From Streptomonospora salina (GTDB lineage: Bacteria > Actinomycetota > Actinomycetes > Streptosporangiales > Streptosporangiaceae), in assembly GCF_014204715.1 (NCBI RefSeq), contig NZ_JACHLY010000001.1, positions 1,829,001-1,893,000 of the forward strand: 64,000 bases of DNA. Direction: 5' to 3'. Below the pieces are notes generated by a model. That model ran no database searches. It was not told where the DNA came from and saw nothing but the letters and a program-made list of their open reading frames with translations. Below, piece by piece: positions 35,180-50,324 of the stretch. A program made the translations under genes and the position numbers. Each line of letters opens with the position of its first letter. Positions within the stretch are counted from its first letter, which is position 1.

Positions 35180-35263
35180 GTCGGAGTGCCTTTCTCGCTG
35201 GTAACAGTGGACACAACTTCAGAACCCGCGCAGCGCCCTGCGCAGCAGGGACGGCGAGGGCAG

Positions 35264-35336
35264 TAGCGGAGGCCGGACTCGAACCGACGACACAACGATT
35301 ATGAGCCGTTTGCTCTGCCAACTGAGCTACTCCGCC
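35264..35336 (-). tRNA. trnM: tRNA-Met (anticodon CAT)
   Basis: Cloverleaf with acceptor GGCGGAG/CTCCGCT (the first pair is G-U), D-arm GCTCAGTTGGCAGAGC, anticodon stem AACGG/TCGTT with loop CTCATAA, T-arm TCGGTTCGAGTCCGG. The base-paired start distinguishes an elongator from an initiator tRNA. Confidence 0.92.
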
Positions 35337-35454
35337 GTAGACCGGGATACACCGGGCATCTGTCAAGAATACCCGACCCGGACAAACCGGGGAACACCTG
35401 TTCCACCGGTTCGCATTCCCACTTGAGCGGTCCGCAACCTCAATCAAGCGGTGG

Positions 35455-35527
35455 AGCCCCCTTACGGATTCGAACCGTAGACCTTCTCCTTACCATGGAG
35501 ACGCTCTGCCGTCTGAGCTAAGGGGGC
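35455..35527 (-). tRNA. trnT: tRNA-Thr (anticodon GGT)
   Basis: 73-base cloverleaf: acceptor GCCCCCT/AGGGGGC, D-arm GCTCAGACGGCAGAGC, anticodon stem TCTCC/GGAGA with loop ATGGTAA, T-arm TACGGTTCGAATCCGTA. It is transcribed with tRNA-Met and rpmG downstream, and accessory DNA starts directly upstream of it. Confidence 0.95.
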
Positions 35528-35675: not shown

Positions 35676-37979
35676 CTATCGCCCCAGGTCGAAGAAGGGG
35701 CCCGGCTGCGGCCCGCCCTGATCGGGATCCGGTCCGGGGCGAGCGGCCGGGGCGCCCAACAGGTCGCCGCCGTACCCGGGATCCTGCCGCCCCGCCGAGC
35801 CCTCTGCGCCCGCGCCGCCGTCCGCGCCCCGCCCCGCGGGCGGAGCCGCCCCGTCAGGGTCCGGTGCCGCGCCGGCGCGGCCCGATTCCGCCACCCAGAC
35901 GTTGGAGGTCGCGTCGCGCTGGATGCGCCGGATGTCGGCAGGCAGGCCGAGCCGGTACAGGGCGTCGGACAGCCGCGTGTCGTGGGTGAACACGATCAGC
36001 TGGCGGTGGCGGCCCACCTCGGCCAGGACCGCCGCCAGCCCTTCGACGGTCTCGGTGTCCATCGCCTGCACCGGATCGTCCAGCAGCAGAAAGCCGAACG
36101 GGTTGTCGGGGACCATGGTCCGCGGCAAGCAGATCGACAGCGCCAGCGCCTGGAACTCGCCCTGGCTGAGCAGGCCGGGCGCGTTTCCGTCGTTCTCCGA
36201 GCCGTCCACGGCGACGTCGACCGCGACGCGCCGCCGCGCGCCCCGTCCCACCAGGCGCATCGCCTCCAGGTCGATGCGGCGCTCCTGGCGCAACCGGTGC
36301 CAGACCTGCTCGGCGTGCGAGGCCAGCGGACGCAACCGCTCGGCGCGGATCTCCCGGGCGATCCCGGCGAGCCATTCCAACGCGCGCTCGGCCGGGCCAA
36401 GGGTTTCCCCCGCGGCGGTCGCCTCCCGGGCATCGCGCACCCACGCGCCCAGCTGCTCGGCGAGCTCGCTCCAGCCGTCGGTGGGATCGTCCAGCTTCTC
36501 CCCGGCCTCCTTGCGCGCCGCTATCGCCGTCGAGCGCAGCCGGCGGCCCACCGTCTCGATGTGCTCGGCGAGCGCGGCGAGATCGGTGATCTCGGCACCG
36601 GCCTCCCACTCGGCCCATACCCGGCCCAGCTCGCTGTCGGGCGGCAGCCACGAGGGCATCGGCGCCATGAGGAAGCGGGCCTGGTCGCGGGCGTTGTCGG
36701 CGCGCTCGTAGGCCGCCGCCGCGTTGGCCGCGACCGGTTCCAGCGCCCTGATCTCGGCGCGGGCGCGCTGCTCCCATTCGGAGCCGAACTCGCCCGCGGT
36801 CCCGCAGGTGGGGCAGTCGGTCTCGGCGGGGTGGCGTTCACGGTGCCGCAGAGCGCTCCTGAGCAGCTCCGCGACGCCCCGGGCGCGGTCCCCCTTGGTG
36901 CCGGCCGCCATCGCGAGTTCCATCGCCGCACCGCGCAACTCGTTGACGACGTCGTTGAGCACGGTGCGTTCGGGCACCGACAGGCGGCGCAGGCGGCGCA
37001 GGACCCGGTGCTGCCGGAGGTCGGCCGGACCGTCGTCGGCGGCGACGGACGCCAGGCGGTCCAGGTCGGGGTTCTCCGACTCCAGCAGATCCGCGGCCTG
37101 GGCGGCGCGCCGGTCGTCGGCGGCCCGCAGCCTGCGCACGAGGTGGCCGTGCTCGTGGCCGGGACGGTCCCGCTGCTTGGTGAGGCGGTCGCAGGCCTTG
37201 GCCAGGCGGCGCTCGGCCTCGGTCAGATCGGTCAGTCCCAGCAGCGCCGTCAGGGTGTCGTAGAGCTCGGCGGCGCGGCCGGTGACGGCTCGGCCCAGTT
37301 CGTCGTAGGACAGGAACGGCCGGTACCGGGCCAGTTCGGGGTCCCAGCCCAGACTGCGCAGCGGCGCCGTGGTGCCGTCGGGTGAGACGACCTCGCCGCG
37401 TGCCGAGCGCACACTCTCTCCGGTCCACGCGCGGGTCACGCGGGTGGGACCGGTTTCGGCGGCGAGCTGGAGCTCGACGGTGATCTCGGTGCCTTCGTCG
37501 AAGTGCAGGTTGCGCCAGCCGTCGCGCCAATCGGCGGGCATCGCGTCCCAGCGCAGGTTCCGGCCGGTCAGAGCGGCCTCGGCGGCTTCGGCGAAACTGG
37601 ACTTGCCCGAGCCGTTGCGGCCCACGATCACCGTCAGTCCCGGTCCCGCCGCGAACTCCAGCGAACTCGGCGTGCCGATGCCGCGGAACCCCTGCACCTC
37701 GATGCGGCGCAGGAAGCTGCGCCGGGAATGCGCCGGGGCACCCGCCTCAGGGGCGTCCGCGGGTTCGGGCGGCGGTTCGGGAACCTCCTCGCCCCGTCCG
37801 CACGCCGCCACCGCATCGTCGCCCTGCAGGGCCGCCAGCACCCATCGGCGCGCGGCGGGGTCCAGGCCGGATTCGGCCAGGCGGTCCAGGAGCGAACGCG
37901 CGGCCACCGCGCTGCTGTCGTACCGGCGCGGTGCAGCGCCGGTGGAGGTCGCAGGACCCGTCGTCACTGTCCTCACCAC
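35676..37979 (-). CDS. Rad50/SbcC-like AAA ATPase with CxxC hook
   Basis: 767 residues from a GTG at 37979 (nearby GTGs at 37976 and 37967 are alternatives). The Walker A GRNGSGKS is at residues 120-127 after IEVQGFRG. A central helical region carries a single CPTC (about 389-392), the layout of the Rad50 zinc hook. The ABC signature-like LSQGEFQALALSICL precedes Walker B FGFLLLDDPVQAMD near residue 640. The tail is Gly/Asp/Pro-rich. The coiled coils are short compared with true Rad50. It lies 246 bases downstream of the Wadjet-like jetC on the same strand. No nuclease partner (SbcD-like) is seen. The role is inferred as DNA transactions or defence. Confidence 0.75.
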   Translation of the reverse strand: MVRTVTTGPATSTGAAPRRYDSSAVAARSLLDRLAESGLDPAARRWVLAALQGDDAVAACGRGEEVPEPPPEPADAPEAGAPAHSRRSFLRRIEVQGFRGIGTPSSLEFAAGPGLTVIVGRNGSGKSSFAEAAEAALTGRNLRWDAMPADWRDGWRNLHFDEGTEITVELQLAAETGPTRVTRAWTGESVRSARGEVVSPDGTTAPLRSLGWDPELARYRPFLSYDELGRAVTGRAAELYDTLTALLGLTDLTEAERRLAKACDRLTKQRDRPGHEHGHLVRRLRAADDRRAAQAADLLESENPDLDRLASVAADDGPADLRQHRVLRRLRRLSVPERTVLNDVVNELRGAAMELAMAAGTKGDRARGVAELLRSALRHRERHPAETDCPTCGTAGEFGSEWEQRARAEIRALEPVAANAAAAYERADNARDQARFLMAPMPSWLPPDSELGRVWAEWEAGAEITDLAALAEHIETVGRRLRSTAIAARKEAGEKLDDPTDGWSELAEQLGAWVRDAREATAAGETLGPAERALEWLAGIAREIRAERLRPLASHAEQVWHRLRQERRIDLEAMRLVGRGARRRVAVDVAVDGSENDGNAPGLLSQGEFQALALSICLPRTMVPDNPFGFLLLDDPVQAMDTETVEGLAAVLAEVGRHRQLIVFTHDTRLSDALYRLGLPADIRRIQRDATSNVWVAESGRAGAAPDPDGAAPPAGRGADGGAGAEGSAGRQDPGYGGDLLGAPAARPGPDPDQGGPQPGPFFDLGR

Positions 37980-38225
37980 ACCCGCTCATTTGTAGGCCTC
38001 GCACAGCAGACTAGGACAGGTCGGGTCAAAGCAGTAGCGCGCCCCGTGATCGCGGGAAGCCGCGACGCGGGCCCCGCCCCGGCGTGTCCCTGCGCACACG
38101 GCCGCGAGGTTCTCCGGAACAGCCCGGGACCGCAGCCGCGGCGGAGCCCGCTTCCGGCTCGCGAGCGTGGTGCGCCGCCGACCCCGACCGGGCCGGCCCG
38201 GTCGGACCCCTCGGCCGCCGGCCGC

Positions 38226-41200
38226 TCACACCCCCACGAGTCTGCGCCTGCTGCCGTCCCAGGTGAAATGCAGAGTGGCGATGCCGGGGACCGCCGGGTC
38301 GCGCAGGCACTCGTAGATATGCAGGCTCGGCACGCTCTCGAAGCAGCCCCATACGCGCTCGGACGTGAGCACGAAGTCGAGGTCGAGCTCGACGAGCAGC
38401 CCGAGCAGGCGGCCGTGGGTGGGCTCGTCGACCTTGGCGAAGGCGTCGTCGAGCAGGATCAGCCGCGGCGCCTGCGGCGCCTGTGCCGCCAGCGAGCCGA
38501 ACTGCGCGGCAGCGGCGGCGAACAGCACCAGGTAGGCCACCACCCGCTGCTCGCCCTGGCTCAGGGCGGTGCGGTGGCTGAGGCGCCGCTCGCGGCCGGG
38601 GTTGGTGGCGTCGGTCACATAGACCGTGAAGGCGAACCAGGAGCGGTAGTCCAGAGCCGCGCGCAGCTGGGCTCCCCCCGTGGCCGTGGGGTCCAGGCGG
38701 CGGATGGCCTCGATGCAGCGGCGCAGCGCGTCGCGCAGCCGCGTCGTCTCGACCCGGGTGCGCTGTTCGGGCGGCTTGGCCAGCAGCGGCACGACCGCCC
38801 GGATGTCCTCGTCGGCGTCGGGGGCGAGCTGCCAGTCCAGACGCACGCCCAGACCCTGGGACGTGGTGGTGTCGCCGAGGACGTCGTTCATCGTGGAGAT
38901 GAGCGCGCGCGCCTCTTCGATCTGCCCGCGCAGATGGCCCGCGAGCTCGCCGAGCAGATGGCGTTCGAACGCTTCCTCCTCGCGCTGCAGCGCGTCCTCC
39001 TCGGCGGCGCCCGCGGCCGTGTCGAGGTGCTCGGCGTAGGCGGTGATGTCGTGGCTGCCGTCGTCGCCGTGCACGGTGAGCCGCTTGATCCCGGCGGGCT
39101 CGGTCAGCTCGGTCCAGGCGCCCACCGCCTCACTGGCGGCGAGCATCCCGTGCAGGTCCTCGCGGCGGCGCAGGATGCCGCTGTCGTCGAGTTCGTCGGC
39201 GGAGGACTCGCCCAGGCCCGGTTCCAGCGCCGACAGCAGCTCTTCGAGCGCGGTGACGCGCCCGGCGAGGGCCTCGTGGTCGGCATCGGCCTCCTGCCCG
39301 GACCCGGCTGCGTCCGCAGCCGCCTGGGCCCCGAGGTGGGCGGCGAGCTCCTCGATCCCGGCCGCGGCCAGCAGCGCGGTGTCGGCGCCGCCCTCATCGC
39401 CGGCGAGCATCGCCCGCAGCACGCCGCCGGAGTCGAGCGCGCGGCGCGCCTGTGCGGCGCGTTCGAGCACGGCGGTATCCAGCCGGGTCTCGGCTGCCAC
39501 GCGGTCGTCGCGTGCACGCTGGGCCCTGCGCTCGACCTCGGGCAGCTGCCCGGCGGCGTCGTCCATCCGCTCGCGGACCTGGCCCACGGCCACGGAGATC
39601 TGGTCGGGGGCGGCCGTGCGCGCCCGGTCGGTGAGCTCGATTTCGCGCCGCACGGTGATCATGTCGGTGATGGCCGCCGTTCGGGCGTCCTCGGCGAGGA
39701 CCCGCCCGGAGCGGGCGTCCTCCCAGGCCGCAGTATGGCCGCGGTAGTCCTCCAGCAGGACGGCGAGGTCCTCCAGGTCGCGATGGGCGGCGGCAAGCTC
39801 GGTGCGCAGCCGCTCCAGCGCCGTCCGCGCGCCGGCGAGCTCGCCGGCGCCCGTTGGGAGCCCGTAGCGGGCAGCGGGCTCGGACAGCTCCGCGCGCACG
39901 CTCAAGGTGGCCTCGCGTGCCGTGTCGAAGGCGTCGCGGGCGGCGTTGTGGGCGCGTTGGGTCCGGGCGAGCCACGACCGCGCGCTGTCCAGGCTCGACC
40001 AGGCGGCGAGCACACCGGAGGGGTCGGGCAGGGACCGGTCGGTCTCGACGAGTGCGGCGTGGGTGCGCTCGATGTCGCCGCGGCGCTCTTCGGCCTCGGC
40101 CAGCAGGGCTTCGGCGATCGCGATGCGGCGGTCGACATTGGCGAGCTGGCGGTCGCTGGTCTCGGCGCGGGCCTCTTTGCCGATGTACTCGGCGCTGGCC
40201 TTGCTGTGGGCGCCGGAGGCCGCCCCCAGCCGCCAGCGGCCCTCGACCGAGACGGCGCTCGACACCGGCGGCGGACTGTCGCGGCGATGGCGGGGCTCGG
40301 GCTCCTCCTCGCCGGGCGGCGGGAGCAGGCCGATGGAGTCCAGCAGCGCCGATACCGCACCGCTGGTGATGCCGCCGGGCACCGGATCGGCGGGTTCGAG
40401 GACGTCGCGCAGGCTGCGGCCCTTGACCGGGCGGCCCGGCGCCAGTAGCAGGTCGCGGGTGGTGCCGTCGGTCAGCGAACCGTCCGCCGCGATCCAGCCC
40501 GAGAGCACGCCGCAGGCCTCCAAGGCGGCCTCCAGGCCGGAGCGTTCGTCGTGGGTGAGGTCGGAGGCGAAGTCGACGGCGAGGTAGAAGGGGGCGCCCG
40601 CCGCCTCGTCGCGCCCGGCGGTGGCCCATGCGGGCCGCTCGGGCGCGATGTGGCCGGATGCGGCGCCGCGGCGCTCGGAGAGCTCGTCGAGCTCGGTGGA
40701 CAGCTCCCGCTCCTCCCCTACGGCGGTGTCGCGGCGGGTGCGCAGCTCCCGCAGGAGGGGGTCGACGGTGCCGTGGGCGTGGCGGGCGACCCGTTCGGGC
40801 ACGTCGGCGTCGAGGACGCGGAGGCTGCCCTCCAGCGGCAGCTCGACCAGCGACTCCAGTTCGGCCAGCTGCGTGCCCAGTTCCGCGTCGGGCGCCGTCT
40901 CGCGCAGTCGGGTGCACCAGGCGCGGACCCGGTCGGTGTAGTCGGCGCTGGCCGAGCGGACGGACTCGATGGCGGTCTGCTCGCGTTCGCGGGCGCGCTC
41001 CAGCACCGCTTCGGCGGACTCGGTTTCGCCGGCGAGGGCGGCCTCGCGCTGCTCGGCGGCCGTGCGCCGCTCGGCGCGTTCGACGAGGTCGGCGACGACG
41101 GCCTCGCGCTCGGCCGCGGCGGTGTCGGCGGCGGTGAACAGGTCGTGCAACTCGGCCAGGCGCGAGCGCAGGTCGGCCACGTCGATACCGGAGACGGGTT

Positions 41201-43007
41201 CGCGCTCGACGGACTGCTCCAGCCCCTCCAGGTTGACGCGGGTGGCGCTCTCCCGGGGGGCGAGCGTGGTGGGCACGGGGTGGGGGATCCGGCCCAGATC
41301 GGCGGGGTCGACGCCGGCGGCGCGGGCGGTGGTGCACAGCCGCTCGTGGAGGCTCCCCAGCCCGTCCAGGGCGCGCTCGATGGCGGCGATGTCGGCGCCG
41401 ATGCGCTGTTGGGCCTGCTCTTCGTTGGTGTTGGCATAGCCGGCGGCACCCGACGCCGCTTCGGCGGCGCGGATGTAGGCCGAGACGGCCGCGTCACGGG
41501 CCTGCTGTTCGAAGTCGGACGCGTTCTCGGGGGCGTCGCCGCTGCGGGAGAGGGTCGCGGTGTCGGACGCGGCGGTCTCGCGGGTGCGGCGCAGCCGGTC
41601 GCGTTCCTCCTGGACGGCGCCTTCGGCGGTGACCAGTTCGTCGAGCTCGCCGGTGAGCCGCTCGACTTCGGCGTCGCGGCGGCGGTAGGCGTCGACCTGC
41701 TCACGCACGGACTCGGCCTGGATGCGCAGGGTCCGCTGCAGATATCCGCGGTAGTCGGCGAGGAAACCCGACACCTGCTCGCGGGCCGAACGCAGCGCCT
41801 GCAGCCGCGCGCGGGCCCGCTCCAGGTCGGTGATGTTGCGCGCCATCTCGTCGAGGATGGTCTCGTCCATGGGCGGCAGCGCCTCGGCGAGCACGGAGAC
41901 GAGCTCGCCGGCCTCCAGGCGCTCGCCGATGGTGGGGCGGCGCAGCCGGTACAGCAGGTGGATGAGGTTGCGGTAGCGCACCGGATCGTCGATGCCGAAC
42001 AGTTCCCGCATGACGCGCGCCCGGTAGTTCACCGGGGTGTCGTAGCAGTTGTCCGGTCCGACGTCGGCGCGCAGCCGGTCGACGGGCATGGGGCGGCCGT
42101 CGTCGACCACCCGCAGGTCGGTTCCGATTTCGCGGTCGGTGATGAAGAACACGCTGCGTGCCTCGGCGCCGGGCGAGGCGGTGACCGCGGCGCCGAGGGT
42201 GATGCGGCGGGCGGTGCCGCCGTGGGCCACGGGCCGGGCGCCGTGCTCGTCGGGGGTGCCGGGGGTGCCGGGGGTGTCCTGCGGGGTGGCGGCGGGGCGG
42301 GTGAATTCCACCCACAGGTAGCCGAGGGTCGCCGCGGGGGCGCCGTCGCCGCCGGAGTCCGGTCCGGAGGCGGCGTCTCCGGCGGCGTCCTCGCCCGCAG
42401 CGGCGCGGCCTTCCGAGGTGTCGGCCCCGGCCGCTTCGCCGGAGCGGCGCCGGGATCCGGGCGCCGCATCGTCGCCGCGGCCCTCCAGCAGCAGCCAGCG
42501 CAAGCTGGTGCGGCTGCTGCCGGTGGTGTCGAGCCGGCGTGCGTCGCCGTCGAGCAGGAACGGCAGCAGCATCTCCAGCGCCTTGGATTTGCCGGCGCCG
42601 TTGCGTCCGCGCAGCAGAAGGCGGCCGTCGGCGAAGTCGAAGACGTGGTCGTCGTAGTGCCAGACGTTGTGGATGCCGGCGCGGTTGAGCCGGTAGCGGC
42701 CGCCGTCCGGTTCGCCGCCGTCGTAGGGGGTGCCGGCCGCGGGTTCGTCGCGGGCGGGTTCGCCCGCAGCGCCCTCCGCGGCGGAGGGGGTGCCGGCCGC
42801 GGGCGTGTCGCCGGCACCGAGCGGGTCGGGGCCGGACGCGCCGCTCGCGGCCGCGTGCCCGCGGCCGTCGGGCGTGCGTGCGGTGTCCCCGGCCGCGGCT
42901 GCGTCGGCCGCTGGGGAGTTCTGGGCGCCGATGGCGCCGCCCGGCGCCTCGGTGCCGCCGCCGTGCGGCGACGGCTCCGTTCGCCCGTGGGCGTTGGCGA
43001 CGGTCAT
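38226..43007 (-). CDS. TIGR02680-family SMC-like ATPase (Wadjet JetC-like)
   Basis: 1593 residues, ATG at 43007 with GGAGGA 6 bases before. Residues 1-100 are an Ala/Gly/Pro low-complexity extension. An N-terminal RYRLNRAGIHNVWHYDD strand leads to Walker A GRNGAGKS (134-141). About 1,100 residues of coiled coil with a central hinge-like domain follow. At the C-terminus come the signature HRTALSQGEQRVVAYLVLFA and Walker B RLILLDDAFAKVDEPTHGRL, then FVLTSERVWGCFESVPSLHI. This is the MukB/JetC-type layout; in Wadjet systems it forms the loop-extruding motor that senses small circular DNA. It is 137 bases downstream of jetB. Confidence 0.85.
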   Translation of the reverse strand: MTVANAHGRTEPSPHGGGTEAPGGAIGAQNSPAADAAAAGDTARTPDGRGHAAASGASGPDPLGAGDTPAAGTPSAAEGAAGEPARDEPAAGTPYDGGEPDGGRYRLNRAGIHNVWHYDDHVFDFADGRLLLRGRNGAGKSKALEMLLPFLLDGDARRLDTTGSSRTSLRWLLLEGRGDDAAPGSRRRSGEAAGADTSEGRAAAGEDAAGDAASGPDSGGDGAPAATLGYLWVEFTRPAATPQDTPGTPGTPDEHGARPVAHGGTARRITLGAAVTASPGAEARSVFFITDREIGTDLRVVDDGRPMPVDRLRADVGPDNCYDTPVNYRARVMRELFGIDDPVRYRNLIHLLYRLRRPTIGERLEAGELVSVLAEALPPMDETILDEMARNITDLERARARLQALRSAREQVSGFLADYRGYLQRTLRIQAESVREQVDAYRRRDAEVERLTGELDELVTAEGAVQEERDRLRRTRETAASDTATLSRSGDAPENASDFEQQARDAAVSAYIRAAEAASGAAGYANTNEEQAQQRIGADIAAIERALDGLGSLHERLCTTARAAGVDPADLGRIPHPVPTTLAPRESATRVNLEGLEQSVEREPVSGIDVADLRSRLAELHDLFTAADTAAAEREAVVADLVERAERRTAAEQREAALAGETESAEAVLERAREREQTAIESVRSASADYTDRVRAWCTRLRETAPDAELGTQLAELESLVELPLEGSLRVLDADVPERVARHAHGTVDPLLRELRTRRDTAVGEERELSTELDELSERRGAASGHIAPERPAWATAGRDEAAGAPFYLAVDFASDLTHDERSGLEAALEACGVLSGWIAADGSLTDGTTRDLLLAPGRPVKGRSLRDVLEPADPVPGGITSGAVSALLDSIGLLPPPGEEEPEPRHRRDSPPPVSSAVSVEGRWRLGAASGAHSKASAEYIGKEARAETSDRQLANVDRRIAIAEALLAEAEERRGDIERTHAALVETDRSLPDPSGVLAAWSSLDSARSWLARTQRAHNAARDAFDTAREATLSVRAELSEPAARYGLPTGAGELAGARTALERLRTELAAAHRDLEDLAVLLEDYRGHTAAWEDARSGRVLAEDARTAAITDMITVRREIELTDRARTAAPDQISVAVGQVRERMDDAAGQLPEVERRAQRARDDRVAAETRLDTAVLERAAQARRALDSGGVLRAMLAGDEGGADTALLAAAGIEELAAHLGAQAAADAAGSGQEADADHEALAGRVTALEELLSALEPGLGESSADELDDSGILRRREDLHGMLAASEAVGAWTELTEPAGIKRLTVHGDDGSHDITAYAEHLDTAAGAAEEDALQREEEAFERHLLGELAGHLRGQIEEARALISTMNDVLGDTTTSQGLGVRLDWQLAPDADEDIRAVVPLLAKPPEQRTRVETTRLRDALRRCIEAIRRLDPTATGGAQLRAALDYRSWFAFTVYVTDATNPGRERRLSHRTALSQGEQRVVAYLVLFAAAAAQFGSLAAQAPQAPRLILLDDAFAKVDEPTHGRLLGLLVELDLDFVLTSERVWGCFESVPSLHIYECLRDPAVPGIATLHFTWDGSRRRLVGV

Positions 43008-43143
43008 CGCCCGTCCTCCGCTCTGTACCGTCTCGCGCCGCGCCGCCGGAGAGTCCTCCGGCGGACGGCGATCCTGCCATTGTTCCGGATACCGCGGACG
43101 CCCGGCGCAGGGTCCCCGGCTCGGGGGCGACCGGGCCACCGGG

Positions 43144-44421
43144 TCATCGCGCGGTGGTCGGCGGTGCCTCGGCGCCGTCCGGTGCTCGGTCTTCGTCGGA
43201 GGTTCCCTCGGCGGGGGAGGTCGGGAAACCGCCGGAGGGCCGCCCGCCGTAACGCGCGGCCGCGGCCCGCAGCCGCCACCCCGATCGGTCGTCGCCGCGG
43301 GAGTCGGGGCGGTGCAGCAGGCCGGTTTCGTGCAGCAGGCGCAGGGCCCGGGCCGCGAGCGTATCGGGGTCGGGCTCCTGGCGCAGTGCCGACCGCGTGC
43401 CGCGGCCGGGCTCGTCCCGGGCCTCGGCGGCGAGTACCGCGGCGAGTTCGCTCTCCAGCACGTCCTCGGGCACCGCCACTGCGCTTTCCGGGACGGTGCC
43501 CGGGCGCAGCCGGGCCACCAGCCGCTCCAGCAGCAGCAGCGCCGCCTGACCGACCGGGGTGGCGCTGGGGAAAGCGGCCACTCCTTCGGCAGCGGCCTCG
43601 CCCGGCATGATCAGGGCGACGCCCTCGGCACGGATCTCGGCCTCGCAGCCGAGCAGGCCGCCGAGCTCGGCCGCGGCCCTCCACTGGTGATTGGCGAGTC
43701 TGCGGCGCTGGCGTTCGGACAGGTCGGCGCGGTAGACGACGGCGGTCTCGGCGAGTGCGCGCCGCAGGGCGATCTCCCCGGCGTCCTCGCCCGCGGGGTC
43801 GGCGGCGCCGTGCCCGTCGACGAACGCGCGGGCGTCGGCGGTGGAGTGGGGCTGGTGGGCGACCACGCGGCGCACGATCTCCGGGTACACGTCCAGCAGC
43901 ACCTCCGCGCCGGAATCGTCGGCGTAAGCGGCCAGTGCGCCCCGCTGTTCGCCGATCGCGCCCCAGTCGGCGAGTTTGCGCAGAGCGGCGGTGAAGGCCC
44001 GGCGCTCCCCCATCCGCTCGCGCGGATCCAGAGCGAGCCCGGCCTCGGCGGCGGCCGCGCCGACGTCCTCGGCGAGCCGGTCGACGGGCAGGGTGGCGGG
44101 GGCCTCGACGAGCACGGCCAGGCACAGCGCGAGGTAGGTGTAGGTGCGCGGCGTGAAGTGGGCGCCGCTGGGCCGGGTGAGGGGGCGGGCCGTCTCCCGC
44201 GCCAGGCCGGTCTTGGCCAGGCGGGCGTAGTCGGCGGCGACGGTCAGCTCGTATCCGAGGACCCGGCGGAAACGCTGGATCAGCCAGTCGGAGTGGGCCC
44301 GGACGAGGGCGAAATCCTCGGGATGGGTGCGGTCGGTGACGATCGGATCGGCCAGCAGCCGCCGCGCGGCCGCCTGGCGTTCGCCCGTGAGGGCGATGTC
44401 CTCGGTCACGGTCGTCGCCAC
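43144..44421 (-). CDS. DUF2398/TIGR02678-family protein (Wadjet JetB-like)
   Basis: 425 residues, GTG at 44421 (another GTG at 44409 has better spacing to AGGAGG). The family pattern is clear: LTGERQAAARRLLADPIVTD, FALVRAHSDWLIQRFRRVLG, the Tyr-rich FTPRTYTYLALCLAVLVEAP, and RAFTAALRKLADWGAIGEQR. It is predicted to be the winged-helix KleE-like subunit that bridges the ATPase and the kleisin in Wadjet complexes (family knowledge). The tail of ~40 residues is disordered. Confidence 0.82.
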   Translation of the reverse strand: MATTVTEDIALTGERQAAARRLLADPIVTDRTHPEDFALVRAHSDWLIQRFRRVLGYELTVAADYARLAKTGLARETARPLTRPSGAHFTPRTYTYLALCLAVLVEAPATLPVDRLAEDVGAAAAEAGLALDPRERMGERRAFTAALRKLADWGAIGEQRGALAAYADDSGAEVLLDVYPEIVRRVVAHQPHSTADARAFVDGHGAADPAGEDAGEIALRRALAETAVVYRADLSERQRRRLANHQWRAAAELGGLLGCEAEIRAEGVALIMPGEAAAEGVAAFPSATPVGQAALLLLERLVARLRPGTVPESAVAVPEDVLESELAAVLAAEARDEPGRGTRSALRQEPDPDTLAARALRLLHETGLLHRPDSRGDDRSGWRLRAAAARYGGRPSGGFPTSPAEGTSDEDRAPDGAEAPPTTAR

Positions 44422-44533
44422 CTCCTGGCGTCGCTGTGGGCGGGGTGCTCGGGGCCGCCGCGTGGCGGGCCCGCTCGCGGGGGACGGACCGCACGGAGGC
44501 GGTGCGCTCGCGCCGGCGGGCCGGCGGGGCGCC

Positions 44534-45295
44534 TCAGTCTTCGCGTGCGAACGGCAGCGGGGTGCCGGAAGCGGGTGCGGGGCGGGAGCGGGATTCGGCG
44601 TCGGGGATTTCGGCGGTCTCGTCGGGGGCGTCGAAGGAGGTCACTCGCAGGCGTAGCCCTTCGAGGCCGAGATCGCCGTCGGCGCCGCGCAGGGTGATGG
44701 CCGCGCGGGGGTCGTGGCGGATGTGCAGGCGGACGCCGAGTTCGAGGTCGCCGGCCGAGACGGGGTGGCGTGTCGCGTCACCGGTCCCCAGCGCGGCGGT
44801 GAGCAGTTCCATCAGGACCTCCATAGCGGGCGTGGAGAGCCGGATACGGGAGTCGCCGCCGGTCGCCTCGGACAGGACCCGGCGCAGCTCCTGGGCGGCC
44901 GAGCGGCGCCAGTGGGCGGAGGACTCGGCGGCGTCGCGCAGCCGGGAGCGCTGCTCGGCGTGGTCGCGGACTTCGGCGGCGGGCAGGGCGTTGGCCAGGC
45001 GTGCGGCCGCGCCGTCGGCCAGCGGCGCCGTCCACCAGCTGGACGCGGCTCCGACCGGGTCCTCGCCGGGGCCGCCGAGGTGGGTCGCGCCGTGCACGGC
45101 GAAGGCCGCGGAGCAGATCTCGTGGGCGGAGCGGGGGTCGGCGTCCTCGAACCAGGCCGCCAGGCGCAGCAGGGCGGCACGGCCGTGCCGGGGCACCGGC
45201 CCGTCCGCCCGTGTGCGCCCGGGCACCCGTTGCCGGGCCCCTGCGGCTCCGCCGCCGGGACCCTCCGTTCTCGCCTGATCCGCTGAGACACCCAC
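44534..45295 (-). pseudogene. DUF2397/TIGR02677-family protein (Wadjet JetA-like), N-terminally truncated
   Basis: The frame gives 253 residues from a GTG at 45295, but family members are about 500. Only the C-terminal half is present: LLRLAAWFEDADPRSAHEIC, AFAVHGATHLGGPGEDP, SSWWTAPLADGAAARL, and the basic helical segment RDHAEQRSRLRDAAESSAHW to the end. The DNA upstream on this strand encodes an unrelated lipoprotein within 170 bases, so the N-terminal kleisin-type domain has been lost, not merely frameshifted nearby. It lies 112 bases before jetB. It could be a pseudogene or a minimal functional subunit. Confidence 0.7.
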
Positions 45296-45460
45296 AACTC
45301 AGCAGACTAAAGACCCCTGGCCACCGTCGCGGACCGAACCTGGGGATCCGCGGCCGCAATCGGACCGGTCGAACCCGTTTGACCTGCGATGAAACCGAGA
45401 CGGGTATTTCTCGTGCGATGCCGTCGCGCTGCGGCGGCGGCCGCGCCGCCGAGGCCGCGG

Positions 45461-46190: not shown

Positions 46191-46478
46191 CTACTCGTGC
46201 GCGTGGCCCTCGGGGATGGCGTCGTAGGCGTCCTGGGAGTCCAGGTTCACCGCCGACGGCCCGTTGGTGCAGTCGCCCGTGGTCTGCGGCGACAGCACCG
46301 GCACGGTGGCCCCGAGCACGGCCACGTTGGCGTTGCAGACGGAGACGGGCAGGACCTGCAGGTTCTGATCGAACTGCTGGTCGCCGCCGTGGGTCTGCGC
46401 CTGCGCGGGGCCGGCCAGCAGGAGCGCCCCGAGGGCGGCACCGGCGACCGTTCCCGCTGCGACGAGGTTGCGCAGCAT
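46191..46478 (-). CDS. Rodlin-like small secreted protein, copy 1 (longest tail)
   Basis: 95 residues. The signal peptide (MLRNLVAAGTVAGAALGALL to about AQAQ) is followed by the family core GGDQQFDQNLQVLPVSVCN, NVAVLGATVPVLSPQTTGDC and TNGPSAVN. Two Cys, many Val/Asn/Gln and no charges in the core suggest a secreted beta-rich surface protein. The VPVL...QxxxxC pattern recalls Streptomyces rodlins. Unlike the other copies it has a C-terminal extension with Asp/Glu/His (DSQDAYDAIPEGHAHE). It is the last of four co-directional paralogues. Confidence 0.65.
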   Translation of the reverse strand: MLRNLVAAGTVAGAALGALLLAGPAQAQTHGGDQQFDQNLQVLPVSVCNANVAVLGATVPVLSPQTTGDCTNGPSAVNLDSQDAYDAIPEGHAHE

Positions 46479-46492
46479 CTCTCGACCAGCTC

Positions 46493-46738
46493 CTAGTCGA
46501 CGTTGGCCGAGACGGGGCCGTTGGTGCAGTCGCCCGTGGTCTGGGGCGACAGCACCGGCACGGTCACGCCGATCGCAGCGGCGACGTTGGCGTTGCAGGA
46601 CTGCGCGGCCACACCCTGCAGGTTCTGGTTGTACTGCTGGTCGCCCCCGTAAGAGCCCGCGTTGGCGGGAGAGGCGGCGACAACGGCCCCGAGGGCCGCA
46701 CCGGCGATCACGCCGGCGATTCCCAGCTTGCGCAGCAT
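46493..46738 (-). CDS. Rodlin-like small secreted protein, copy 2
   Basis: 81 residues, ATG at 46738 with GGAGAGG 8 bases before (a GTG at 46747 is too close to that site). Signal peptide, then SYGGDQQYNQNLQGVAAQSC and the shared VPVLSPQTTGDCTNGPVSAN end. It differs from copy 3 by one residue in the whole protein (Ala versus Gly after CNANV). It lies 14 bases after copy 3 and 14 bases before copy 1. Confidence 0.65.
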   Translation of the reverse strand: MLRKLGIAGVIAGAALGAVVAASPANAGSYGGDQQYNQNLQGVAAQSCNANVAAAIGVTVPVLSPQTTGDCTNGPVSANVD

Positions 46739-46752
46739 CCGGATCACCTCTC

Positions 46753-46998
46753 CTAGTCGACGTTGGCCGAAACGGGGCCGTTGGTGCAGTCGCCCGTGGT
46801 CTGCGGCGACAGCACCGGCACGGTCACGCCGATCGCAGCGCCGACGTTGGCGTTGCAGGACTGCGCGGCCACACCCTGCAGGTTCTGGTTGTACTGCTGG
46901 TCGCCCCCGTAAGAGCCCGCGTTGGCGGGAGAGGCGGCGACAACGGCCCCGAGGGCCGCACCGGCGATCACGCCGGCGATTCCCAGCTTGCGCAGCAT
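46753..46998 (-). CDS. Rodlin-like small secreted protein, copy 3
   Basis: 81 residues, ATG at 46998 preceded by AAGAAGGGA; an upstream start at 47028 is possible but lacks a site. Nearly identical in DNA to copy 2. It is predicted to be exported by Sec and to assemble at the cell surface, an inference from the signal peptide and family resemblance only. Confidence 0.65.
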   Translation of the reverse strand: MLRKLGIAGVIAGAALGAVVAASPANAGSYGGDQQYNQNLQGVAAQSCNANVGAAIGVTVPVLSPQTTGDCTNGPVSANVD

Positions 46999-47056
46999 AG
47001 GGAATTCCCTTCTTACTGTGAAACGCATGGAAAGTGGATGAAGCGGGTCCGCGCCG

Positions 47057-47299
47057 TCAGTCGACGTTGGCGGTGCTGGGGCCGTTGGTGCAGTCGCCCG
47101 TGGTCTGCGGCGACAGCACCGGCACGGTCGCGCCGAGCACCGAGGCGTTGGTGTTGCAGAGCTGGATCGGCACGACCTGCAGGTTCTGGTTGAACTGCTG
47201 GTCGCCCCCGTAGGGGCCTCCGGCGTGCGCGGGGCCAGCCATCAGCACAGCGCCCATCGCGGCGCCGGCGAGCAGACCGGCAGCGGTCAACTTCTTCAT
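47057..47299 (-). CDS. Rodlin-like small secreted protein, copy 4 (first in the array)
   Basis: 80 residues, ATG at 47299 (MKKLTAAGLLAGAAMGAVLM), with GGGGG 7 bases before. The core reads GGDQQFNQNLQVVPIQLCNT then SVLGATVPVLSPQTTGDC, intermediate between copies 1 and 2/3. It is closest to the array promoter and 58 bases before copy 3, so all four are probably one transcript. Confidence 0.65.
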   Translation of the reverse strand: MKKLTAAGLLAGAAMGAVLMAGPAHAGGPYGGDQQFNQNLQVVPIQLCNTNASVLGATVPVLSPQTTGDCTNGPSTANVD

Positions 47300-47379
47300 C
47301 ACGATTCCCCCGGAATTATCAATACGAGGTGCTGGAGAAAGACGCATCGAGGCGCCCGTTGTCGCGGTGGACGGAAGCA

Positions 47380-49730: not shown

Positions 49731-50033
49731 ATGCAGTACTCCTGCACGAAGAGCAGCGCGCCCCGCACGAACTTGTACCCGGTCTGGAGCAAAGCCCGCG
49801 CGATCGCCCTGCCACCGGACAGGGTCGCCACTCCCCTCGCCCTGCGCCCATACGACCTGCGGCATGCGGCCGTGTCGACGTGGCTCAACTCGGGGGTGCC
49901 GGCGGCCAAGGTCGCCGAGCGCGCCGGGCACTCGGTGGCCGTCCTCCATCGGGTCTACGCGAAATGCCTCGACGGTGACGACGCGATCGCCAACGCGCGG
50001 ATTGAACGGGTCCTGGATGGCGACAACGGGTGA
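49731..50033 (+). pseudogene. int: Tyrosine recombinase (integrase), C-terminal fragment
   Basis: About 100 residues of the catalytic domain's end: LRPYDLRHAAVSTWLNSGVP holds the box II Arg (the usual preceding His is Tyr), AERAGHSVAVLHRVYAKCL holds the conserved GH and the nucleophilic Tyr. The N-terminal two thirds, including box I Arg, are gone. The fragment ends ~210 bases from tRNA-Tyr, the usual place of an integrase next to its att site. It cannot be active. Confidence 0.85.
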
Positions 50034-50238: not shown

Positions 50239-50292
50239 TGGGTGGCAGGTCAAGGATTCGAACCTTGGAAGGCTGAGCCGGCGGTTTTACAG
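50239..50292. repeat. att repeat, tRNA-proximal copy
   Basis: Partner of 48929-48982. It includes the 3' half of the functional tRNA-Tyr and a few bases beyond it. Confidence 0.9.
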
Positions 50293-50324
50293 ACCGCTCC
50301 CTTTGGCCGCTCGGGCAACCTGCC
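50243..50324 (-). tRNA. trnY: tRNA-Tyr (anticodon GTA)
   Basis: 82-base class II tRNA: acceptor GGCAGGT/ACCTGCC, D-arm starting TGCCCGAGCGGCCAAAGGG, anticodon stem GCGGT/ACCGC with loop CTGTAAA, long variable arm, T-arm CAAGGTTCGAATCCTTG. The 3' CCA is not encoded. It is the integration target of the element at 48929-50292. Confidence 0.95.

What the first reader, a model, noticed from the sequence alone, without database searches (positions are those of the whole stretch)
35676..45295. Incomplete Wadjet-like cluster joined to a Rad50-like ATPase between two tRNA genes
Seen: an SMC-like ATPase with the TIGR02680 end (38226-43007), a DUF2398/TIGR02678 protein (43144-44421), half of a DUF2397/TIGR02677 protein (44534-45295), and a separate Rad50/SbcC-like ATPase (35676-37979), all on one strand and between tRNA-Thr and tRNA-Tyr. 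Known: the DUF2397, DUF2398, TIGR02680 and DUF2399 families together make a Wadjet anti-plasmid system. Inference: this is either a degraded Wadjet or a derived form in which the Rad50-like protein replaces the missing nuclease subunit.
Basis: partly seen in the sequence, partly recalled or inferred. Interest (0 to 1): 0.75.

Follow-up and report, generated by a model that had tools for sequence, protein, structure and literature searches.

The report
Disarmed Wadjet relative with Rad50-like partner
A bacterial DNA-motor complex related to the plasmid-cutting Wadjet system has lost its cutting subunit and half of the protein that normally closes its ring, gained a Rad50-like partner, and is kept at one fixed chromosomal site across a family of actinobacteria, which suggests a weapon turned into a maintenance machine.

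Summary
The four genes are at the stated coordinates. They are not a decaying Wadjet.

The 253-aa 'half' JetA is a conserved short form: 34 of 150 family genomes, 40 of 40 of one genus. The order short jetA-jetB-jetC-Rad50-like holds in 30 of 33 fetched short-JetA loci; the other three stop at contig ends. JetD is in 0 of 33. DUF2399 is nowhere in 17 of 35 tested genomes.

The site is fixed: tRNA-Thr within 0.5 kb of the Rad50-like gene in 54 of 54 loci with a close copy. Short JetA lacks about the first 315 residues of JetA. JetC's head-to-coil segment, by position the neck, is relaxed in the short-JetA rows.

Distant Rad50-like relatives carry a longer C-terminus (20 of 20 scored) and an adjoining partner gene (23 of 24 loci); close copies lack both.

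Best reading: two defence-type ATPases, both without presumed effector parts, kept together as a non-cleaving DNA-maintenance complex. Conservation and loss are shown; function is inferred. 'Derived form' is right, 'replaces the nuclease' only in position.

The parts
45300..45309 (-). TAGTCTGCTG, -10-like promoter element 4 bases before the GTG of short jetA (TAGTCT itself ends 8 bases before it, so the transcript is probably leaderless)
   Evidence: exact TAGTCT upstream of 33 of 46 relatives' jetA; TAGTCTGCTG occurs twice in 64 kb (mean 0.00 in 100 shuffles) and 5 times in the 5.6 Mb genome (reversed control pattern: 2)
44534..45295 (-). short JetA (253 aa): C-terminal part of a Wadjet-II kleisin; lacks the region equivalent to about the first 315 residues of N. 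vireti JetA
43144..44421 (-). JetB (KITE-type subunit, DUF2398), 425 aa
38226..43007 (-). JetC (SMC ATPase, TIGR02680), 1593 aa, Walker A, signature and Walker B motifs intact
41718..41852 (-). part of jetC for residues 386-430 (first coiled-coil segment after the head, taken as the neck): holds the five windows most relaxed in the short-JetA rows compared with full-JetA systems
38004..38013 (-). TAGTCTGCTG, -10-like promoter element upstream of the Rad50-like gene, the same ten bases as before jetA
35676..37979 (-). Rad50-like ATPase ('RAD'), 767 aa: Walker A GRNGSGKS, LSQGEF signature, DDPVQAMD Walker B, zinc-hook-like CPTC at residues 389-392
35452..35527 (-). tRNA-Thr(ggt), constant neighbour of RAD
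35263..35336 (-). tRNA-Met(cat), constant neighbour
50241..50324 (-). tRNA-Tyr(gta), other border of the syntenic interval

Best explanation
This is a lineage-wide, nuclease-less derivative of a type II Wadjet: short kleisin (JetA C-terminal part), KITE-type JetB, SMC JetC and a Rad50-like ATPase in JetD's place. SHOWN: conservation, fixed site, absence of JetD, loss of the kleisin's N-terminal half with relaxation of the JetC segment next to the head, and a Rad50-like protein without the longer C-terminus and partner gene of its distant relatives. INFERRED: JetC can still bind ATP and DNA, with JetB and the kleisin's C-terminal domain on its head. Without the kleisin N-terminus it can neither bridge head to neck nor pair two motors, so it cannot run the dual-motor, cleave-when-fully-extruded cycle of Wadjet. 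The Rad50-like dimer (zinc hook) works with it as a second DNA-binding motor. Together they tether, clamp or compact DNA as a chromosome-maintenance function instead of cutting plasmids, by analogy with MksBEF, which is thought to be a JetD-less Wadjet descendant.
For: Conserved short JetA: 34 of 150 family genomes, 40 of 40 genomes of one genus. Same order with RAD in 30 of 33 fetched short-JetA loci (the other 3 cut by contig ends), JetD in 0 of 33, while all 4 JetD-bearing loci of that set have full-length JetA and no RAD hit. 54 of 54 genomes with a close RAD also have this JetA: 46 in the same locus (45 short, 1 full-length), 8 elsewhere in the assembly. tRNA-Thr adjoins RAD in 54 of 54. 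17 of 35 genomes have no DUF2399 anywhere. The five lowest of 226 overlapping windows for JetC conservation relative to full-JetA systems lie in residues 386-430. Foldseek's only convincing matches for short JetA are the Wadjet-II JetA chains 9qe1_E and 9qe0_E. RAD tail after the H-loop: 34-46 aa in 51 of 54 close copies against 168-178 aa in 20 of 20 scored distant ones; partner gene 0 of 54 against 23 of 24. dN/dS below 1 in all 35 pair comparisons. Shared TAGTCTGCTG element. Review PMC10586767, passages and section 7: JetABC motors pair through the kleisin N-terminus; MksBEF probably arose by loss of JetD.
Against: No function was measured. Canonical ScpA is present in 11 of 11 tested genomes, so this is not the only condensin. 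RAD has its own upstream promoter-like element, is parted from jetC by about 5 kb of other genes in G147 (L040) and has no jet gene in 9.97 kb upstream in N. endophytica (L085), so a physical complex is not proven. The JetC neck was assigned by position, not from contacts in 9qe0; two other JetC stretches (about 931-955 and 1036-1065) also score below full-JetA systems, less strongly. In the JetC tree Allonocardiopsis, which has full-length JetA, groups with the complete systems, so the neck pattern is confounded with phylogeny. The short-JetA model is confident mainly for residues about 113-222 and its Foldseek matches have E just above 0.001 and low TM-scores (0.31-0.33). dN/dS was computed by a simple method on very GC-rich genes.
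Confidence: 0.55

Rival explanations
1. It is still an anti-plasmid or anti-phage defence system: JetABC senses foreign DNA and the Rad50-like ATPase, alone or with a host nuclease such as SbcD, is the new effector or recruits one.
For: RAD sits where JetD normally is; its best PADLOC matches are defence ATPases (mad3, LmuB); two neighbours of distant relatives that I scanned match defence models (PDC-S48 in L140, Orf5/HEC-06 in L132); all core parts descend from defence-type systems.
Against: No nuclease family among the matches of the four proteins (Pfam lists complete, some NCBIfam and PADLOC lists for RAD cut at 25); RAD lacks the longer C-terminus and partner gene of distant relatives; the locus is syntenic and present in 40 of 40 genomes of a genus, unlike a typically patchy defence locus; the kleisin part needed to pair two motors is absent.
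Confidence: 0.27
2. JetABC and the Rad50-like ATPase are two independent housekeeping genes that happen to share a stable neighbourhood.
For: Own promoter-like elements; intervening genes in L040 and separation in L085; distant RAD homologues live without Jet genes (24 of 24).
Against: Co-occurrence in 54 of 54 genomes with close RAD; both have their reduced forms in the same lineage; the same ten-base element before both genes in the window.
Confidence: 0.13
3. A decaying Wadjet copy with a chance neighbour.
For: Half-length JetA and missing JetD; the same genome does hold one truly decayed Wadjet remnant elsewhere.
Against: The same short form in 34 of 150 family genomes and 40 of 40 genomes of a genus, intact JetC motifs in 30 of 30 scored rows, dN/dS below 1.
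Confidence: 0.02
4. The missing kleisin half and nuclease are supplied in trans by the genome's second, complete Wadjet.
For: A complete JetABCD exists in the same genome at 3481110-3489589, and 16 of 35 tested genomes have a DUF2399 match that is more than a short fragment.
Against: 17 of 35 genomes have no DUF2399 at all and two more only frames of 83 and 76 aa; the JetC segment taken as the kleisin-binding neck is relaxed. I did not search these genomes for full-length JetA with a DUF2397 model, and the short JetA query misses even the own genome's full JetA, so absence of a second kleisin was not tested.
Confidence: 0.03

Closest known systems
Wadjet type II (JetABCD; N. vireti structures 9qe0/9qe1)
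   Same: JetA C-terminal domain, JetB and JetC homologous, in the gene order of complete systems
   Different: no JetD; the kleisin lacks its N-terminal half; a Rad50-like ATPase stands in JetD's place; the locus is fixed and syntenic
MksBEF (P. aeruginosa-type, without MksG)
   Different: MksBEF has a whole kleisin and no Rad50-like gene (recalled); here the core is of type II
Rad50/SbcC
   Same: ABC-ATPase fold with CxxC zinc-hook-like motif; best fold matches are Rad50 and SMC heads
   Different: short coiled coil, no Mre11/SbcD gene in the operon, an N-terminal helical extension (model)
Distant RAD family with small partner gene (Pseudonocardia, Geodermatophilus and others)
   Same: 37-42% identity over nearly the whole ATPase
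   Different: about 130 more C-terminal residues and a ~126-aa partner gene, no Jet genes
Lamassu LmuB
   Same: SMC-like defence ATPase; LmuB is the second-ranked PADLOC match to RAD, and a chain of a Lamassu LmuACB complex is fold match 20
   Different: no LmuA effector or LmuC match among the four cluster proteins as listed

Membership tests
Wadjet type II | JetC SMC ATPase of the TIGR02680 family | tested here: met
   791.8 bits against a cut-off of 462.85; motifs intact
Wadjet type II | JetB (DUF2398/TIGR02678) | tested here: met
   DUF2398 258 bits; TIGR02678 105.9 bits is below its 124.65 cut-off
Wadjet type II | full-length JetA kleisin with the N-terminal region that pairs two motors | tested here: not met
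   only DUF2397 positions 300-481 present; short in 33 fetched loci (32 of them aligned)
Wadjet type II | JetD (DUF2399) nuclease | tested here: not met
   0 of 33 short-JetA loci, three of them too short to show it; 0 of 54 close-RAD loci; in the own genome only in a separate system
Wadjet type II | restriction of circular plasmids | not testable with these tools
   needs an experiment
MksBEF-like nuclease-less condensin | SMC-kleisin-KITE genes without the nuclease gene | tested here: met
MksBEF-like nuclease-less condensin | kleisin that bridges head and neck | tested here: not met
   N-terminal half missing
MksBEF-like nuclease-less condensin | role in chromosome organisation | not testable with these tools
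   needs an experiment
Rad50/SbcCD | ABC ATPase with CxxC hook motif | tested here: met
   31 of 31 rows have Walker A, Walker B and a CxxC; fold matches
Rad50/SbcCD | Mre11/SbcD nuclease gene in the operon | tested here: not met
   the four cluster proteins show no nuclease family
Lamassu | LmuA effector and LmuC beside LmuB | tested here: not met
   no LmuA or LmuC model among the matches listed for the four cluster proteins (E up to 0.01; for RAD the best 25 of 52 were shown)
RloC/PrrC anticodon nuclease | C-terminal anticodon-nuclease domain | tested here: inconclusive
   close RAD has little room for one (tail 34-46 aa in 51 of 54, 71-106 in three); the C-terminal part of the distant RADs was not identified

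The most novel reading that the evidence does not exclude
A natural SMC complex that works with half a kleisin, hence without a closed tripartite ring and without kleisin-paired motors, and that has recruited a Rad50-like zinc-hook ATPase as its partner: two separately disarmed defence ATPases joined into one essential or near-essential chromosome-maintenance machine of a whole bacterial family.
Probability: 0.35. Interest if true: 0.9.

Novelty: new variant of a known kind. Interest (0 to 1): 0.74.

Why it matters
All SMC complexes that I know of (recalled) close their ring with a whole kleisin. A conserved natural complex that keeps only the C-terminal half would test directly whether ring closure and motor pairing are needed, and for what. 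It would also be a clear case, with a possible intermediate (Allonocardiopsis: full JetA, RAD, no adjacent JetD), of a DNA-cutting immune system turned into a fixed, non-cutting one, which bears on the open question whether chromosome condensins arose from defence systems. Annotation that reads this locus as a Wadjet would credit these genomes with a plasmid defence that they may not have.

Tried and rejected
Considered and rejected. (1) Decay: see conservation. (2) A split kleisin with its N-half elsewhere: DUF2397 in the own genome gave the full JetA of the second Wadjet, the short JetA and one further piece at C1:729651-729869; six-frame reading of L007 shows this piece within what reads as a decayed Wadjet remnant followed by a JetC-like C-terminal remnant. 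N-half remnants upstream of short jetA: no hit with four full-length JetA queries in the close loci that reach jetA (46 of 54, one of them the full-length L121). A diverged N-half elsewhere in relatives was not searched. (3) RAD as an RloC- or HEPN-type nuclease: the close copies lack the longer C-terminus; the RxxxE...H pattern of the distant RADs and the LSxAxHH pattern of their partner are leads recalled from memory, and the partner's arginine is not invariant. Two partner proteins gave no Pfam match and three no PADLOC match (a third Pfam query, L150:8739-9157, missed the gene). (4) Short JetA outside the family: 394 genomes of the class searched, 41 with a match; the 23 with E below 1e-45 are all in family f1. 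Of 17 genomes with a match outside f1 I fetched 6: 5 hold a full-length JetA with B, C and D hits (L165 and L167 in several pieces) and 1 (G475, 253-aa frame) was too short to tell; the other 11 were judged only by open-frame length. (5) Plasmid or phage carriage of RAD: 3 plasmid records at 35-49% identity, 0 phage records.

Led nowhere: VIA-align library not available. My script picked a wrong small frame for JetC in L058 and L061, so these two rows were not scored for motifs. L094 (jetA) and L120 and L149 (RAD) show broken or partial frames that may be assembly errors. The profile match of the JetA alignment to 9qe0 (E 0.0022) includes the full-length Allonocardiopsis row and spans chain residues 19-377, so I do not use it to place the short form. 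The first count of distant RAD tails mixed in one unrelated frame; the recount gives 23 RAD frames for 24 loci, 20 scored, three without the motif (L133, L146, L153), none read for L152. The five lowest windows overlap each other; in fixed blocks of 25 residues, block 401-425 is the lowest of 46.
Full report
WHAT IS THERE. On the minus strand the window holds, in transcriptional order, a 253-aa JetA (44534-45295), JetB (43144-44421), JetC (38226-43007) and a 767-aa Rad50-like ATPase, here called RAD (35676-37979), followed by tRNA-Thr and tRNA-Met; tRNA-Tyr lies on the other side at 50241. JetC passes the TIGR02680 cut-off, JetB the DUF2398 cut-off, and the 253-aa protein matches only the last 180 or so positions of DUF2397.

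NOT A WRECK. A search of 150 genomes of the family with the short JetA found matches in 45. In 33 of these (the own genome included) the match has E of 4e-49 or better; a 34th, G063, is a more diverged short form. I fetched 38 neighbourhoods: 33 have a short JetA and 5 a full-length one. In 30 of the 33 the order is short jetA, jetB, jetC, RAD on one strand (in L040 with about 5 kb of other genes before RAD); the other three (L047, L064, L075) end at a contig end before RAD could be seen. JetD was found in 0 of these 33, and in 4 of the 5 full-length ones, none of which has a RAD hit. The fifth full-length one, L069, is Allonocardiopsis opalescens (named through L121): full JetA, B and C, no JetD hit, and RAD in the opposite orientation at the same tRNA site. 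Its only DUF2399 match is an 83-aa frame elsewhere, and the 16 kb fetched around it hold no jetABC hit. It looks like an intermediate.

NAMED GENOMES AND FIXED SITE. A scan of one genome per species with a RAD profile found 353 stretches that encode a relative and kept the best 80, 78 distinct loci; the scan works by two exact peptide patterns, so it can miss relatives. 54 loci are close (57-89% identity to the window's RAD): the titles name Streptomonospora, Nocardiopsis, Thermobifida, Marinactinospora, Murinocardiopsis, Marinitenerispora, Actinorugispora, Allosalinactinospora and Allonocardiopsis, a 'Nocardiopsaceae bacterium', one MAG named only as Actinomycetes and one record titled Glycomyces. 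Most of these genera belong to the family now called Nocardiopsidaceae; Allonocardiopsis is placed in Streptosporangiales incertae sedis. 24 loci are distant (37-42%), in Pseudonocardia, Geodermatophilus, Blastococcus, Frankia and others. Of the 54 close loci, 46 show this JetA in the same locus (45 short, 1 full) and for the other 8 the same genome holds it elsewhere in the assembly (one search examined 10 genomes and all 10 had it). Of the 24 distant loci, 0 show any Jet gene hit. In 53 of the 54 close loci tRNA-Thr(ggt) starts between 31 bp before and 459 bp after the end of the RAD match, and tRNA-Met follows; in the 54th (L121, RAD inverted) tRNA-Thr lies just beyond RAD's other end. The site is therefore fixed, which argues for vertical inheritance and against a mobile defence island.

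JETD. Searching 35 genomes (34 short-JetA genomes including the own one, plus Allonocardiopsis) for DUF2399 anywhere gave 18 with a match, 17 of them over the cut-off, and 17 with none; two of the 18 (G060, G132) are frames of 83 and 76 aa. The own genome's DUF2399 belongs to a complete Wadjet at 3481110-3489589. The system persists where no JetD is found.

WHAT THE SHORT KLEISIN LACKS. Full-length JetA of Allonocardiopsis aligns with residues 21-416 of the solved Wadjet-II JetA 9qe0 (N. vireti), and the conserved part of short JetA begins at the equivalent of about residue 316. So roughly the first 315 residues are missing. By fold the only convincing relatives of the short JetA model are 9qe1 and 9qe0 chain E (Foldseek E 1.3e-3 and 1.4e-3, probability 0.99 and 1.00, but TM-scores only 0.31-0.33; no match reached E 0.001); the model is confident mainly for residues 113-222. 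According to the review PMC10586767 (passages and section 7 read), JetABC forms a dimer of motors through the kleisin N-terminus. That kleisin N-termini bind the SMC neck is established knowledge, recalled. The start is real: in the window and many relatives a -10-like element, TAGTCT, ends 8 bases before a GTG (TAGTCT found within 130 bases upstream or 20 downstream of the start chosen by script in 33 of 46 jetA). TAGTCTGCTG occurs twice in the window with mean 0.00 in shuffles and 5 times in 5.6 Mb (reversed control 2), the second copy being in front of RAD (TAGTCT in 28 of 54 relatives; many others have one-base variants).

MATCHED CHANGE IN JETC. I compared conservation of JetC in 17 short-JetA rows (of 33 available with the window's own) with 7 rows from full-JetA systems. 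Over 226 overlapping windows of 25 residues short-type JetC is on average more conserved (mean difference +0.12), but the five windows with the strongest opposite sign lie in residues 386-430 (0.57 against 0.74 at 406-430), directly after the head where the neck should be; stretches at 931-955 and 1036-1065 follow with -0.08 to -0.09. Allonocardiopsis, which keeps a full JetA, keeps the conserved pattern there; leaving it out gives the same four lowest windows. The neck was assigned by position; contacts in 9qe0 were not available to me.

RAD. It has Walker A, Walker B, CxxC and THD motifs in 31 of 31 rows, and LSQGEF in 29 of 31; mean column identity over 32 rows is 67%. Its fold matches Rad50, SMC and JetC heads and a chain of Lamassu LmuACB. 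The distant relatives continue for 168-178 residues after the H-loop motif (20 of 20 scored; of 24 loci three lack the motif and one gave no frame), the close ones for 34-46 (51 of 54; three have 71-106). A small partner gene begins 282-425 bp after the end of the RAD match in 23 of 24 distant loci (the 24th is a 3-kb contig) and was found in 0 of 54 close ones. Two neighbours of distant copies that I scanned match defence models (PDC-S48, Orf5/HEC-06). In a quick RAD tree of 32 rows the 18 close rows form one clade (SH-aLRT 100; midpoint root) with Allonocardiopsis deepest. In a quick JetC tree of 25 rows the 19 short-JetA rows form one clade (SH-aLRT 95) and Allonocardiopsis falls with four complete systems; the outgroup, the own complete Wadjet, has a very long branch, so the root is unsure.

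SELECTION. Nei-Gojobori dN/dS over 8 or 9 chosen species pairs per gene: JetA 0.26-0.75, JetB 0.23-0.68, JetC 0.11-0.38, RAD 0.07-0.28. All 35 are below 1; JetA's two highest values come from the rows with the longest tails.

HOW IT PROBABLY WORKS. Shown: an operon-like set without any recognised nuclease, with intact SMC and Rad50-type ATPase motifs, kept at one site. Inferred: the half kleisin holds JetB on one JetC head but does not close the ring or pair motors, so the plasmid-measuring cycle of Wadjet cannot run; RAD, a zinc-hook-type dimer, acts with it as a second DNA-binding motor; the pair tethers, clamps or compacts DNA. The nearest precedent is MksBEF, held to be a JetD-less descendant of JetABCD (PMC10586767). 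Canonical ScpA is present in 11 of 11 genomes tested, so this is an additional machine. The main rival is that it remains a defence system with RAD or a host nuclease as effector.

IN PRINT. Searches for Wadjet with JetD and type II (17 papers), JetABC/JetD/kleisin (5), Wadjet with Nocardiopsis (1, a passing mention by the passages read), N. vireti with Wadjet (1), the TIGR/DUF names (0), phrases for a lost or missing JetD (2) and Wadjet with Thermobifida (0) listed nothing whose title, abstract start or passages read describe this variant. I read passages and one section of PMC10586767 and passages of PMC12287153, PMC12647877 and PMC11706625, and only the listing of the others, including the RloC papers. 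The library lacks most subscription journals and preprints.

VERDICT. A new variant of a known kind, well supported as a conserved entity, with an inferred function.

Noticed in passing
own genome C1:3481110-3489589 (L002): A separate, complete type II Wadjet (JetA, JetB, a long JetC-like frame and JetD with DUF2399), very distant in sequence from the window's JetC.
   Followed up: partly
own genome C1:728151-731369 (L007): What reads as a decayed Wadjet remnant: a piece of a JetA N-terminal region followed by a JetC-like C-terminal remnant, next to what reads like a superoxide dismutase gene (read by eye).
   Followed up: partly
window 46191-47347 (-): Three tandem paralogous small, apparently secreted proteins (91-96 aa, sharing ..VPVLSPQTTGDCTNGP..) upstream of jetA, without a Pfam match.
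   Followed up: no
window 49731-50033 (+): A fragment of a tyrosine integrase (Pfam Phage_integrase, 18.7 bits, below cut-off) beside tRNA-Tyr, perhaps the trace of an old integrated element.
   Followed up: no
L129-L153 (without L149): An apparently uncharacterised two-gene unit in other actinobacteria and a few other phyla: an ~800-920-aa Rad50-like ATPase with a longer C-terminus and an adjoining ~126-aa partner with the pattern LSxAxHxxxYELxPT; in some loci beside a DEDDh exonuclease (PDC-S48 match) or other defence-type genes.
   Followed up: partly
L168 (G008 C43): A second system in a short-JetA genome with JetA hits over the N-terminal half, B and C hits but no JetD hit in the 19 kb fetched; the genome's DUF2399 is on another contig.
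   Followed up: no
L040 and L085: The jetC-RAD junction is broken by what reads like an ABC transporter and regulator insert in G147, and RAD has at least 9.97 kb of other genes upstream in N. endophytica (read by eye).
   Followed up: partly
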